Assembly: GCA_020072585.1 (NCBI GenBank)
Contig: JAIQGL010000042.1
Coordinates: 1 to 42,153, forward strand
Reading direction: 5' to 3'
Source of the DNA: Terriglobia bacterium
GTDB lineage: Bacteria > Acidobacteriota > Terriglobia > Terriglobales > Acidobacteriaceae
Length of the DNA stretch: 42,153 bases
Shown here one piece after another: positions 9,811 through 18,188 of the stretch (the stretch's first letter is position 1; the number at the start of each line of letters is the position of its first letter). The position numbers and the translations under genes were made by a program. The notes beneath the pieces were generated by a model, which saw only the letters and a list, made by a program, of their open reading frames with translations, was not told the DNA's origin and made no database searches.

Positions 9811-10257
9811 CTAATTTATCGGAGGGACGTTCTGAAGGTCAACCAACTTATAGTCGCCATGGATGATGCCGTCACGGATCATCTTGGCTGACCAGCCCTT
9901 CTTTGACTGCCGATAAGAATAGAGAGCTTCCTGAATGCAGGTACCGCAGTAAGCGCCGTGCGTGCTTTCAAAGCAGCTGCGCAGACTTGAGTGGCCGTGG
10001 CTGCGGTCACAATAGCAATAGCACGGCATCTGGTACAGAATTGAGGAGACTTTGGCGGCAGCTTTGTATGATTCCGTCTGGGCCGGTGCAATCAGGCCCT
10101 GAGGCGTGAGGTCCTTCTGCGTGACCAAGGGCGGTAGCTTGGTAGCTGCGGATGGAGCCGCGGGATGGAATGCTGGAACAGCCGGCTGCTGGTTCAATTG
10201 CGCATGAGTCATGGCAGCAGCAAGAAGAATCGCGAGCACACCCAGAAAATGCTTCAT
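9811..10257 (-). CDS. Secreted PCYCGC-motif-like protein
   Basis: A 148-aa exported protein: signal peptide at residues 1-20 (MKHFLGVLAILLAAAMTHAQ), a Pro/Ala-rich linker to about 60, then a Cys-rich domain with PCYCYCDR (78-85; Cys79, 81 and 83), a His-containing SHGHSSLRSC segment (Cys95) and YCGTC (Cys104, Cys107). The layout resembles the PCYCGC-motif family of bacterial secreted or lipoproteins, whose role is unknown; clustered Cys and His suggest metal binding. Start is supported by TAGGAG 6 nt upstream. It is divergent from lepB with about 100 bp between the starts; lepB's -10 element TATAAT (10324-10329) sits in this gap. Confidence 0.85.
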   Translation of the reverse strand: MKHFLGVLAILLAAAMTHAQLNQQPAVPAFHPAAPSAATKLPPLVTQKDLTPQGLIAPAQTESYKAAAKVSSILYQMPCYCYCDRSHGHSSLRSCFESTHGAYCGTCIQEALYSYRQSKKGWSAKMIRDGIIHGDYKLVDLQNVPPIN

Positions 10258-10357: not shown

Positions 10358-10939
10358 ATGGAGATGCCCGACCAACCTACGACGCAGGTCCAGCCAGAGG
10401 CGGCGCCTCCGGCATCCGAACCTGATTATCTACGCACGTTGCGTACATGGATGCGCGACCTCTTCTTCTGTATCGTCGTTTCATTTTTCATTATTCTATT
10501 TGTGTATCAGCCAGTGAGGGTAGAAGGCGGCAGCATGGAGCCCGGCCTGGAAGACCAGGAGCGGATCTTCATCAACAAACTCGTGTATCGCCTGGAGAGC
10601 ATTGAACGCGGCGACATTATTGTTTTTCGCTATCCGCGGGACACGCATAAAAGTTTCATCAAACGTGTGATCGGCCTGCCCGGGGACCATATTTATATCG
10701 CATCTGGCCACGTGTTCGTAAACGGCAACCAACTATTGGAGCCCTACGTCCCTTCTGATTACCAGGATGCGAGATCGTTTGCAGAAATCGTAGTGCCCAA
10801 CAGTGCCTATTTTGTTCTGGGCGATCATCGCTCCATGTCCAATGACAGCCGCGAGTTTGGCCCGGTAATGCACGGTTACATTTATGGCAAGGCCGTCTTT
10901 GGCTATTGGCCCATGGAGAAACTGGGAATTCTTCACTAA
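10358..10939 (+). CDS. lepB: Signal peptidase I
   Basis: Type I leader peptidase that cleaves signal peptides of exported proteins at the outer face of the inner membrane. The 193-aa protein has one N-terminal membrane helix (about 33-51, FFCIVVSFFIILFVYQPV) and the Ser/Lys dyad: Ser59 in EGGSMEP and Lys102 in FIKRVIGLPGD. The later boxes GDHRSMSNDSREFG (155-168) and GKAVFGYWP are present. GGGAGAG precedes the ATG with a normal spacing, and TATAAT lies at 10324-10329, though no good -35 is visible. A second in-frame ATG is at codon 3. Only 7 nt separate its stop from the downstream CMD-family gene. Confidence 0.95.
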   Translation: MEMPDQPTTQVQPEAAPPASEPDYLRTLRTWMRDLFFCIVVSFFIILFVYQPVRVEGGSMEPGLEDQERIFINKLVYRLESIERGDIIVFRYPRDTHKSFIKRVIGLPGDHIYIASGHVFVNGNQLLEPYVPSDYQDARSFAEIVVPNSAYFVLGDHRSMSNDSREFGPVMHGYIYGKAVFGYWPMEKLGILH

Positions 10940-10946
10940 ACAAACG

Positions 10947-11465
10947 ATGCTTACGAAGCTCAAGGTTTTTCTGATCCGCAAACTGGCCAGAAAACGGCTG
11001 GGAAAAGATATCGCGCCACTGAACACCATCGCCACCAATCCTGACGTTCTGGTGGCTTACGCCAGGTTCGGTATGGCCCTGGACAAGACCACCTTTGTCC
11101 CGGCGAAGTTAAAAGTGCTGGGGCAGATACGCGCGGCCAAACTGGTAGAGTGCCCTTTTTGAATTGACATCAACTCTGCCGGGGGCAGACGCACGGGCAT
11201 CAGCGACGATCAGATCAGGAACTTGAACTGGTATCCGGAGAGCGATCTGTTTACGTCCGATGAAAAACTGGTACTGGAACTGGCGGACGCCATCACCGCT
11301 ACACCTGCAAAAGTTACACCGGAGTTGCGTGAGCGCTTGCAGAAGCGATTTTCAACGCCGCAACTGGTAGAACTGGCCGCAGCCATTGCGTGGGAGAATT
11401 ACCGGGCCCGTTCCAACCGGGTCTTTGGCTTCGGTAGTGAAGGGTTCTATAAGCCAGCAGGCTAG
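10947..11465 (+). CDS. CMD/AhpD-like selenoprotein candidate (CxxU)
   Basis: One continuous reading frame of 173 codons interrupted only by an in-frame TGA at 11160-11162 (codon 72). Before it the protein reads AKLKVLGQIRAAKLVECPF and directly after it IDINSAGGRRTGISDDQIR, then TSDEKLVLELADAITA, which is the carboxymuconolactone decarboxylase/AhpD-like fold. In this family the motif is CPFC followed by ID; here the second Cys is TGA, so C69-P-F-U72 with selenocysteine is the simplest reading. A hairpin fitting a bacterial SECIS lies at 11175-11189. AhpD relatives are thiol-based peroxidase partners, and CxxU members of this fold are known in bacteria. The start 7 nt after lepB lacks a clear Shine-Dalgarno and may be translationally coupled. 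Its stop overlaps the stop of the converging DUF2442 gene (CTAG). Alternative: a nonsense mutation or base error in a TGC/TGT Cys codon. Confidence 0.75.
11175..11189 (+). promoter_or_regulatory. SECIS-like hairpin after the in-frame UGA
   Basis: TCTGCC (11175-11180) and GGCAGA (11184-11189) form a perfect 6-bp stem with a GGG loop, or a 5-bp stem with a CGGGG loop. The apical Gs lie about 19-21 nt after the UGA, within the range known for bacterial SECIS elements, which need a G at the start of the apical loop for SelB binding. The arms use the codons GGG and AGA, unusual choices for a GC-rich gene that would be explained by pairing. Confidence 0.6.
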
Positions 11466-11875
11466 CCTTTAGCAACTTTCTTAGGTCTTCCGCCCAGTTT
11501 TCCGTTTGCCCTCGAAGCCGCCTTCTTGGCAGCGCTCCGGGACTGGCCGCCGGTTTGACCAAGTCTTGATGCCATCCACTTTCTGGAGCCAAGAAGGCCT
11601 TCCAAGAGGCCCGGCACGTAGAGATCCGCATCCAGTTTGGGAAAATGGATGCCAAAGCCGGATGGGGTAATCTCAATTTCCTCGAGCTGAGATGGTCTGG
11701 CATTTTCGAAACCCTGAGCGTCCTGTGGTGAAAGACTTAGAGTCAGTTTTGAGCTTAGATTTATTACAATGCGCCCGCTCCTGCGATCATAATGCGCAGA
11801 GACAGCCCGGGGATTCGATGCCTGCAGGTTCTTAGCACGCTGGTTTGCTATTTTGAAATCATCACGCGATGCCAT
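11462..11875 (-). CDS. DUF2442 domain protein
   Basis: A 137-aa protein. The central part (about residues 24-105) fits DUF2442: SAHYDRRSGRIVINLSSKLTLSLSPQDAQGFENARPSQLEEIEITPSGFGIHFPKLDADLYVPGLLEGLLG, a small beta-rich domain. The C-terminus is a basic tail rich in Lys, Arg, Ala and Gly that could bind nucleic acid. A strong Shine-Dalgarno (GGGAGGAA) lies before the ATG inside the end of the DUF4160 gene, which overlaps by 14 bp, so the two are one coupled unit. DUF4160/DUF2442 pairs are common and have been suggested as toxin-antitoxin-like modules; which would be the antitoxin is not established. Confidence 0.85.
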   Translation of the reverse strand: MASRDDFKIANQRAKNLQASNPRAVSAHYDRRSGRIVINLSSKLTLSLSPQDAQGFENARPSQLEEIEITPSGFGIHFPKLDADLYVPGLLEGLLGSRKWMASRLGQTGGQSRSAAKKAASRANGKLGGRPKKVAKG

Positions 11876-12110
11876 GAATTTCCTCCCATGACCGGCAAAG
11901 CTCTTCCAGATGCTTTGTCAAAACGGTTTGAATGTGCGAAAGTTCCCGCCTGGAAAAGCCATAGTTCTCACGCAGTTCCGCCGGTCCAGCCGCACAGTTC
12001 AGATTGAATACTGCCTCAGAGCCGCGTCCGATCACATGCACGTGGGCCGGCCGGTGATCGTTCAAATAGATCACCACACGCAGTCCACTAAATCTGAGGA
12101 CCGTTGGCAT
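11862..12110 (-). CDS. DUF4160 domain protein
   Basis: An 82-aa protein covering the whole DUF4160 domain: MPTVLRFSGLRVVIYLNDHRPAHVHV (first strands with the HxHV signature at 23-26), then EAVFNLN, then two helices in SRRELSHIQTVLTKHLEELCRSWEEIHG. The HxH with nearby Arg could be a metal or catalytic site, but no activity is established for the family. It is the first gene of the pair with DUF2442. The ATG has no Shine-Dalgarno; TACAAT lies 7 nt upstream on the minus strand, so the message may be leaderless. A long inverted repeat (12123-12152) covers the promoter region. Confidence 0.85.
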   Translation of the reverse strand: MPTVLRFSGLRVVIYLNDHRPAHVHVIGRGSEAVFNLNCAAGPAELRENYGFSRRELSHIQTVLTKHLEELCRSWEEIHGIA

Positions 12111-17395: not shown

Positions 17396-18188
17396 ATGGC
17401 ACGTGGTTCCGGAATTTTACTTTTCATGACGTTGCTGACTGTTACAGCGCCTGTGGCCGTGGCGCAGACAACCATGACCTGGACCATCGACGGAATCCAG
17501 CGGCAAGCTCTGGTGTTTGCGCCTATGCCAGCAACCAACGCCCACAAAATCCCACTGGTATTTGCTTTTCATGGACATGGCGGCACCATGCAGAGCGCCG
17601 CACAGGGGATGCACCTGGAGACGCTCTGGCCCGGAGCGGTCATTGTGTATCCACAGGGGCTAAAGACGCCGAGCCGCGTTGATCCGCAGGGAAAGAACTT
17701 TGGCTGGCAGGTGCAGGCCGGCCAGGCGGGGCTCGATAATCGCGACCTGAAGTTTTTTGATGCGATGGTGGTCACGATGCACGAGAAATTTCCCGTGGAT
17801 GATGCGCGCATCTATGCCACTGGGTTTTCCAACGGCGCAATCTTCAGTTATCTGCTGTGGGCGGAGCGCGGCAAAACCCTGGCAGCCTTTGGAATTGTTG
17901 CGGGAAGACTTGATCCGGCTGAGCATCTTACCTTGCCGCGGGCCGTGGTGGTCATTGGGGGGACGAACGATAACATTCTGCCATTTGCTTTACAGCAACA
18001 GACGATCAATCTTGACCGCCCAAATCAATAGCGCTTCCGGTGCTGGCCAGTCATGCGGGCCTATTTGTACGTTCTATCCTTCCACAACGCAGACTCCAGT
18101 GGTGACTCGGATTCATGACGGCGGCCACTTCTATCCACCCTGGGCAGGGTCGGCGATTGTGGCATTTCTCAAGCTGCATAAGCTGTGA
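17396..18188 (+). pseudogene. PHB depolymerase/LpqC-type esterase, frameshifted
   Basis: A secreted alpha/beta-hydrolase split over two frames. The first frame has a signal peptide (1-23), the oxyanion motif FAFHGHGGT, the nucleophile in ATGFSNGAIF (Ser145) and the acid region VIGGTNDNILPF, then ends at TAG 18029-18031. The family continues in the +1 frame as QINSASGAGQSCG, FYPSTTQTPVVTRI and HDGGHFYPPWA (catalytic His), stopping at 18188. Removing one C from the CCC run at 18019-18021 joins them as LDR-QINSAS, so a single inserted base explains the break. Promoter and a strong Shine-Dalgarno (GGGAGG) are intact, so the damage is recent or is a sequence error. Related enzymes hydrolyse polyhydroxyalkanoates, feruloyl or acetyl esters. 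Confidence 0.85.

What the first reader, a model, noticed from the sequence alone, without database searches (positions are those of the whole stretch)
10947..11465. In-frame TGA in the CxxC motif of a CMD/AhpD-like gene: a CxxU selenoprotein
The frame before and after the TGA (11160-11162) is the same, the protein family continues smoothly through it (VECPF-U-IDINSAGG), and the stop falls exactly at the second Cys of the CPFC redox motif. If random, a nonsense change would be unlikely to hit a position where Cys-to-Sec replacement is expected. AhpD-like CxxU proteins are a known kind of bacterial selenoprotein. Ordinary gene finders would report two truncated pieces here. Its place directly after lepB is also notable.
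Basis: partly seen in the sequence, partly recalled or inferred. Interest (0 to 1): 0.85.

Follow-up and report, generated by a model that had tools for sequence, protein, structure and literature searches.

The report
CPFU selenoprotein gene in an acidobacterium
A soil-type acidobacterium carries a small redox-protein gene in which a 'stop' codon is almost certainly read as the rare amino acid selenocysteine; the protein belongs to a selenoprotein kind that is already catalogued, although its branch lacks the usual catalytic helpers of the best-studied relatives.

Summary
TGA 11160-11162 lies in frame in a 172-residue CMD-family gene (10947-11465), at the second position of a CPF-U motif. The selenoprotein reading is strongly supported. 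The genome has tRNA-Sec, SelA, SelB and a SelD that itself carries a TGA. All 24 close homologous places found in 150 genomes of the same family have one TGA; in the 22 fetched it aligns with this one. Among the 80 nearest relatives from named records, 73 have TGA, 6 Cys, 1 Ser. After the UGA, at the offset of the E. coli fdhF loop, 88 of 88 distinct Sec copies form 5-6 of 6 pairs of one hairpin; 6 Cys copies form 1-3. Codons there are skewed to build the stem. CMD-like and AhpD-like CxxU selenoproteins are already catalogued (passages), so this is a new member of a known kind. Two corrections: the AhpD proton relay is not conserved, so 'AhpD-like' describes fold family and motif, not mechanism; and the lepB neighbour was found only in the genus and nearest relatives. 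Enzymatic function is inferred.

The parts
10947..11465 (+). CMD-family selenoprotein gene, 172 aa with Sec72; CPFU motif at residues 69-72
   Evidence: Translation; Pfam CMD 25.3 bits; NCBIfam NF053654 'YciW-related (seleno)protein' 91.4 bits, below its 310-bit cut-off; 24 close places in 22 of 150 genomes
11160..11162 (+). UGA codon, inferred to be read as selenocysteine (Sec72)
   Evidence: In frame; TGA at the aligned codon in 22 of 22 fetched close loci and 73 of 80 further loci
11175..11189 (+). SECIS-like hairpin: arms 11175-11180 (TCTGCC) and 11184-11189 (GGCAGA), loop 11181-11183 (GGG), at +13 to +27 after the UGA
   Evidence: 5 or 6 of 6 pairs in 88 of 88 distinct Sec copies, 1-3 pairs in 6 of 6 Cys copies; loop begins at +19, as in E. 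coli fdhF
10358..10939 (+). lepB, signal peptidase I, 7 nt upstream; neighbour, probably not functionally linked
   Evidence: Pfam Peptidase_S26 158.7 bits; found beside the gene only in the genus and nearest relatives

Best explanation
The gene encodes a selenoprotein of the CMD superfamily. SelB carrying Sec-tRNA-Sec binds the hairpin 13-27 nt after UGA 11160 and inserts selenocysteine at codon 72, giving a Cys-Pro-Phe-Sec redox pair in a protein of the AhpD-type fold family. The pair most likely works as a reductase or peroxidase centre: Sec attacks the oxidised substrate, and Cys69 resolves the intermediate as a selenylsulfide that cellular thiols reduce again. The coding evidence (UGA, machinery, hairpin, conservation) is shown from sequence. 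Sec insertion itself is inferred with high confidence. The redox chemistry is inferred from the CxxU motif and fold family, and the substrate is unknown. The AhpD proton relay is not conserved, so the catalytic details probably differ from AhpD.
For: Machinery in the same genome: tRNA-Sec 73.9 bits, confirmed by ARAGORN with anticodon tca; SelA 542.7 bits; SelB 385.2 bits; SelD 371.5 bits with one TGA, in the context EQVKAAG-U-ASK. The same family searches pass their cut-offs in 5, 1, 2 and 2 of 14 control genomes for tRNA-Sec, SelA, SelB and SelD. Conservation: 24 of 24 close places in 150 genomes have one TGA, aligned at CPF-U (21) or CLF-U (1) in 22 of 22 fetched; 73 TGA, 6 Cys, 1 Ser among 80 further loci; 11 of 13 places at 110 bits or more in 297 genomes of the phylum have a TGA. 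Hairpin: 499 of 528 pair cells formed in 88 distinct Sec copies, against 202-253 of 528 when the partner is slid by 1-2 nt and 14 of 36 in the Cys copies; loop base +19 is G in 86 of 88. Codons: Ser at codon +5 is TCT in 82 of 86 (6% of Ser elsewhere in these genes); Arg at codon +9 is AGA in 66 of 82 (2% elsewhere). The folding minimum of 21-nt windows lies at +7 to +33 in Sec copies only. Co-occurrence: 21 of 22 genomes with the gene have SelA over the cut-off, against 71 of the other 128 (Fisher p = 2e-4); the exception G120 has a tRNA-Sec.
Against: For the window's own gene taken alone, the hairpin is no stronger than synonymous shuffles (p = 0.25); in the set of 88, 13 are at p 0.05 or under. 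Its weight comes from homologues, and the stem tested was defined from the Sec consensus. Not every part pairs: the innermost pair forms in 63 of 88, and offsets +10/+30 and +11/+29 form in 12 and 21 of 88. The protein scores 91 bits against NF053654's 310-bit cut-off. SelA was not found in one draft genome that has the gene (G120). No expression or mass-spectrometry data are at hand. The redox function is not tested, and AhpD relay residues are missing. The structure prediction never finished.
Confidence: 0.96

Rival explanations
1. A pseudogene, or a nonsense or sequencing error at the Cys codon: the gene is broken into two pieces.
For: Plain ORF listing gives two pieces (10884-11162 and 11223-11465). 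The hairpin of this one copy is not stronger than synonymous shuffles (p = 0.25).
Against: The same TGA stands in 22 of 22 fetched close loci and in 73 of 80 others. There is purifying selection on both sides and a conserved hairpin tied to the TGA.
Confidence: 0.01
2. UGA is reassigned or suppressed (for example read as Trp) rather than read as Sec.
For: The frame stays open through the TGA.
Against: Paralogues and Cys-form homologues have a redox Cys at the site. tRNA-Sec and SelA/B/D are present. TGA ends 9 of 23 large ORFs that I picked from the window and 9 of the 21 close homologous genes whose terminator was seen, so it still means stop elsewhere.
Confidence: 0.01
3. UGA is a true stop and a truncated protein of about 71 residues is the working product; the downstream part is a separate gene started at an internal codon.
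For: An internal TTG-started frame 11223-11465 exists.
Against: The CMD domain match spans the TGA. The stretch between the TGA and the TTG holds invariant residues (D74, S77, A78, G84 in the 20 sequences of A1), and both halves are under selection.
Confidence: 0.01
4. The protein is a true AhpD-type alkylhydroperoxidase using the canonical proton relay, with Sec in place of the second Cys.
For: CxxU motif and homology to AhpD-like structures (profile hit 2gmy, E = 2.9e-18).
Against: The relay Glu (15 before) and His (4 after) are not conserved: Glu in 10 of 87, His in 9 of 88, and Phe at -1 in 84 of 88, whereas PMC3141380 calls the two Cys and the last His invariant in the AhpD-like proteins it compares (passages).
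Confidence: 0.15

Closest known systems
CMD-like selenoprotein (Pfam PF02627, CxxU), reported from the Sargasso Sea (PMC1088965) and listed in PMC9312934 and PMC13188914 (passages seen)
   Same: CMD domain, CxxU motif with Sec second, hairpin downstream of the UGA
   Different: No sequence of those listed members was compared here, so identity of the subfamily is not shown; the window's copy is from an acidobacterium with a CPFU motif
NCBIfam NF053654 GroundWater_YciW, 'YciW-related (seleno)protein'
   Same: Matches 20 of 20 members of A1 (best E 9.8e-39); the window copy 91.4 bits over residues 32-169
   Different: Window copy far under the 310-bit cut-off, so not an equivalog of that family by its own rule
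AhpD-like / peroxidase-related proteins (TIGR01926, TIGR00778; PDB 2gmy, 2o4d)
   Same: Related by sequence, CxxC/CxxU pair
   Different: No conserved relay Glu and His; invariant Asp two after Sec
E. coli fdhF SECIS
   Same: Apical loop begins 19 nt after the UGA in both
   Different: Stem sequence and loop (GGG or GTG against GGTC) differ
The second paralogue in the same genome (C23, CEY-U)
   Same: CMD-family relative, in-frame TGA, hairpin after it
   Different: 34% identity; the nine fetched members of its group keep the relay Glu (8) and His (9)

Membership tests
Bacterial selenoproteins | In-frame UGA at a redox position held by Cys in homologues | tested here: met
   TGA in 22 of 22 close loci; Cys in 5 of 9 paralogues and in 6 of 80 further loci
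Bacterial selenoproteins | tRNA-Sec, SelA, SelB, SelD in the genome | tested here: met
Bacterial selenoproteins | SECIS hairpin just downstream of the UGA, loop with G | tested here: met
   88 of 88 distinct Sec copies with 5-6 of 6 pairs; loop base +19 G in 86 of 88; not significant for the window copy alone (p = 0.25)
Bacterial selenoproteins | Selenium incorporation shown by labelling or mass spectrometry | not testable with these tools
   Needs an experiment
CMD superfamily (PF02627) | Score over Pfam's gathering cut-off | tested here: met
   25.3 bits against 23
AhpD-like peroxidases | CxxC (or CxxU) pair | tested here: met
   C69 and U72; Cys at -3 in 88 of 88
AhpD-like peroxidases | Proton-relay His four residues after the second Cys, Glu fifteen before (PMC3141380, passages) | tested here: not met
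   +4 is G 50, N 27, H 9, S 2 of 88; -15 is mixed, E in 10 of 87; the window has N and V at these places
NF053654 GroundWater_YciW | Score over the curated cut-off | tested here: not met
   91.4 against 310 bits
gamma-carboxymuconolactone decarboxylases | CxxC motif absent (PMC3141380, passage) | tested here: not met
   CPFU present, so it does not look like that subfamily

The most novel reading that the evidence does not exclude
The CPFU branch is a distinct CMD subfamily in which Sec is the prevailing state (73 of the 80 nearest copies kept; record titles and tree name Acidobacteriota, Gemmatimonadota, Planctomycetota, Myxococcota, Actinomycetota and others). It lacks the AhpD proton relay and instead has an invariant Asp two residues after Sec, implying a selenium-dependent redox chemistry different from AhpD. 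In three of the four Actinomycetota Sec copies of the tree it sits directly after a gene with sigma-70 domains, suggesting a stress-regulated role.
Probability: 0.4. Interest if true: 0.5.

Novelty: new member of a known kind. Interest (0 to 1): 0.35.

Why it matters
It adds a well-supported selenoprotein to Acidobacteriota, a phylum where a few were already known (PMC1794560, PMC12013277; passages), in a gene that plain ORF listing splits in two. It also shows a redox family whose sampled near members mostly use Sec, and in which the hairpin seems to dictate both codons and residues (S-A-V/G-G/S-R) beside the active site. The missing AhpD relay makes it a useful case for asking what Sec does when the usual catalytic helpers are absent.

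Tried and rejected
A neighbour survey gave no partner conserved across the family. The largest cluster (37 loci) lay on the minus strand at varied distances; I judged it to be antisense artefacts and did not pursue it. One subclade (6 loci) shares an upstream amino-acid permease (Pfam on L057). lepB linkage was rejected as general: 4 of 22 loci (all same genus, flanks up to 1.5 kb); 8 loci, one of them (L053) identical over the gene to L021. Pfam scans of 10 upstream neighbours, picked from 72, found sigma-70 domains in 3 (L076, L100, L121); the fourth Actinomycetota neighbour scanned (L082) had no match. ECF41-group membership was not tested; the link of ECF41 with CMD genes is from PMC3426412 (passages).

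A promoter/terminator scan gave no more than chance. The direction of Sec/Cys change was not settled: the quick tree needs at least 5 changes of state within the group, and it left out the partial rows L038 and L039, as did A1. A search of plasmid records found only relatives under 60% identity (82 records).

Literature searches found the CMD-like CxxU class in print. In that library no paper joins selenoprotein, sigma factor and carboxymuconolactone (0 papers) or Angelobacter and selenocysteine (0 papers); most subscription papers are not in it.

Full report
Observation. The window reads in one frame from ATG 10947 to TAG 11465, with a single internal stop, TGA 11160-11162, in VECPF-U-IDINSAGG. 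lepB ends 7 nt upstream. The read-through product scores 25.3 bits against Pfam CMD (cut-off 23), and the match spans the TGA. NCBIfam's nearest model is NF053654, 'YciW-related (seleno)protein', 91.4 bits against a cut-off of 310.

Machinery. It holds a tRNA-Sec (73.9 bits; ARAGORN, anticodon tca), SelA (542.7 bits), SelB (385.2 bits) and SelD (371.5 bits). The tRNA-Sec model is not specific by itself: it passes its cut-off in 5 of 14 control genomes, and a second hit here over the cut-off is a tRNA-Ser, so ARAGORN's call matters. SelA, SelB and SelD pass in 1, 2 and 2 of 14 controls. SelD itself has one TGA, in EQVKAAG-U-ASK near its N-terminus; I recall that this is the usual Sec place of SelD.

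Conservation of the UGA. In 150 genomes of the same family, 59 have a match at E 1e-10 or better. The 24 places at 67.9 bits or more lie in 22 genomes and all hold exactly one TGA. Of the 44 weaker places, 20 have a TGA and 24 have no stop. The 22 close loci that were fetched all have TGA at the codon aligned with codon 72 (21 CPF-U, 1 CLF-U). Of nine fetched paralogues, four have TGA and five have Cys there. A scan of named genome records kept the best 80 of 129 relatives: 73 TGA, 6 Cys, 1 Ser. Those 80 are the nearest to the query, and one of the two scan patterns includes a Cys at the site; how that Cys was back-translated was not checked, so the ratio is not an unbiased rate. A profile search of 297 genomes of the phylum gave 13 places at 110 bits or more, 11 with a TGA; the other two were not inspected, and weaker places are mixed. 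The nearest named record that bears a genus name is Candidatus Angelobacter sp. Gp1-AA117 (75%); Acidobacteriaceae MAGs without a genus name reach 82-90%.

Selection. Among seven distinct copies from the genus and nearest named relatives, pN/pS is 0.25 before and 0.14 after the TGA; dS is saturated for some pairs. The downstream half therefore looks translated and constrained. TGA still ends 9 of 23 large ORFs that I picked from the window, so the code is not changed.

SECIS. Of 95 TGA loci, 88 are distinct around the site. Offsets +13 to +18 and +22 to +27 after the UGA pair in 499 of 528 cells (6 pairs in 59 copies, 5 in 29). Sliding the partner by 1 or 2 nt leaves 202-253 of 528. In the six Cys copies 14 of 36 cells pair. 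The stem was defined from the Sec consensus, which favours the Sec copies in this comparison. The innermost pair forms in 63 of 88; below the stem, +12/+28 pairs in 77 of 88 but +11/+29 and +10/+30 in only 21 and 12. Changes on both sides that keep pairing occur at +12/+28, +13/+27 and +15/+25. Loop base +19 is G in 86 of 88. Ser at codon +5 is TCT in 82 of 86, against 6% of Ser codons elsewhere in these genes; Arg at codon +9 is AGA in 66 of 82, against 2% elsewhere. The E. coli fdhF loop begins at the same +19. Mean folding energy of 21-nt windows is -6.8 and -7.65 at +7 to +27 and +13 to +33 in Sec copies, and between -1.1 and -4.7 in the other windows from -120 to +90; in the Cys set (6 plus 5 paralogues) it is -1.95 at +13 to +33 (values from offset 96 on in that table are spoiled by a contig end and are not used). 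Against synonymous shuffles the Sec set has mean z -1.12 (13 of 88 at p 0.05 or under), and the window copy alone p = 0.25. The amino acids themselves already favour the stem, so that test is weak for one gene.

Co-occurrence. SelA is over its cut-off in 92 of 150 genomes. Of 22 genomes with the CPFU gene, 21 are among them (71 of the other 128; Fisher p = 2e-4). The exception, G120, has a tRNA-Sec. For the weaker places, 19 of 20 genomes with a TGA copy have SelA, against 5 of 23 with a stop-free copy only; G021, which has both and has SelA, was left out of the latter (p = 1e-6). Relatedness was not corrected for.

What it does. By sequence profile the nearest solved structures are AhpD-like proteins (2gmy, E = 2.9e-18). 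PMC3141380 (passages) gives the relay of M. tuberculosis AhpD as Glu118, Cys130, His132, Cys133, His137, and calls the two Cys and the last His invariant among the AhpD-like proteins it compares. At the matching places the CPFU branch has a mixed residue (E in 10 of 87), Cys 88 of 88, Phe 84 of 88, Sec, and G/N/H/S (H in 9 of 88), with Asp two after Sec in 88 of 88. The nine fetched paralogues keep Glu (8), Tyr (9) and His (9). The best reading is a Cys/Sec redox centre on an AhpD-type fold with different proton transfer. This is inference; the structure job did not finish and no substrate is known.

Context. lepB adjoins the gene in 4 of 22 close loci, all of the same genus, and in named near relatives. 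I found no neighbour conserved across the family. In three Actinomycetota loci (L076, L100, L121) the upstream gene has sigma-70 domains; in a fourth (L082) it does not. CMD genes beside ECF41 sigma factors are known (PMC3426412, passages), but I did not test for that group.

Known or new. CxxU proteins of CMD type were reported from the Sargasso Sea (PMC1088965) and stand in the tables of PMC9312934 and PMC13188914; AhpD-like and distant AhpD forms, and four selenoproteins of Acidobacteria, are in the tables of PMC1794560 (passages). PMC1242214 lists a UGA-containing relative of a CMD protein in Geobacter sulfurreducens (one passage). So this is a new member of a known kind. The Sec-dominant CPFU branch without the relay may merit its own subfamily; I did not compare it with the members listed in those tables.

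Noticed in passing
Own genome C23:206954-207355 (L010): A second CMD/peroxidase-related gene with in-frame TGA (CEY-U) and its own hairpin after the TGA; unlike the window gene, its group keeps the AhpD relay Glu and His.
   Followed up: partly
Own genome C72:81590-82516 (L049): selD itself carries an in-frame TGA (AAG-U-ASK), so it is very likely a selenoprotein too.
   Followed up: partly
L130, codon after CPC: A Rokuibacteriota copy has CPCS in place of CPFU but keeps a SAVGR segment and much of the hairpin sequence; its sister in the tree, L099, has the TGA: looks like a recent loss of Sec.
   Followed up: partly
L076, L100, L121 upstream of the match: ORFs with sigma-70 region 2 and/or 4 domains directly upstream of the Sec gene in Actinomycetota.
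   Followed up: partly
L023, L029, L057, L059, L070, L078 upstream of the match: In this acidobacterial subclade an ORF cluster upstream of the Sec gene is shared by 6 loci; L057's member is an amino-acid permease by Pfam.
   Followed up: no
window 11462-12110, strand -: DUF2442 and DUF4160 genes in a row, convergent with and touching the end of the selenoprotein gene; resembles a small two-gene module.
   Followed up: no
window 9811-10257, strand -: Protein of the PCYCGC-motif family (PF13798), divergent from lepB; its motif reads PCYCYC.
   Followed up: no
window 17396-18188, strand +: PHB-depolymerase-like esterase frame (21.2 bits, just under cut-off) that seems to continue in another frame near 18010; possible frameshift. 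The second frame (17757-18188) had no Pfam match.
   Followed up: no
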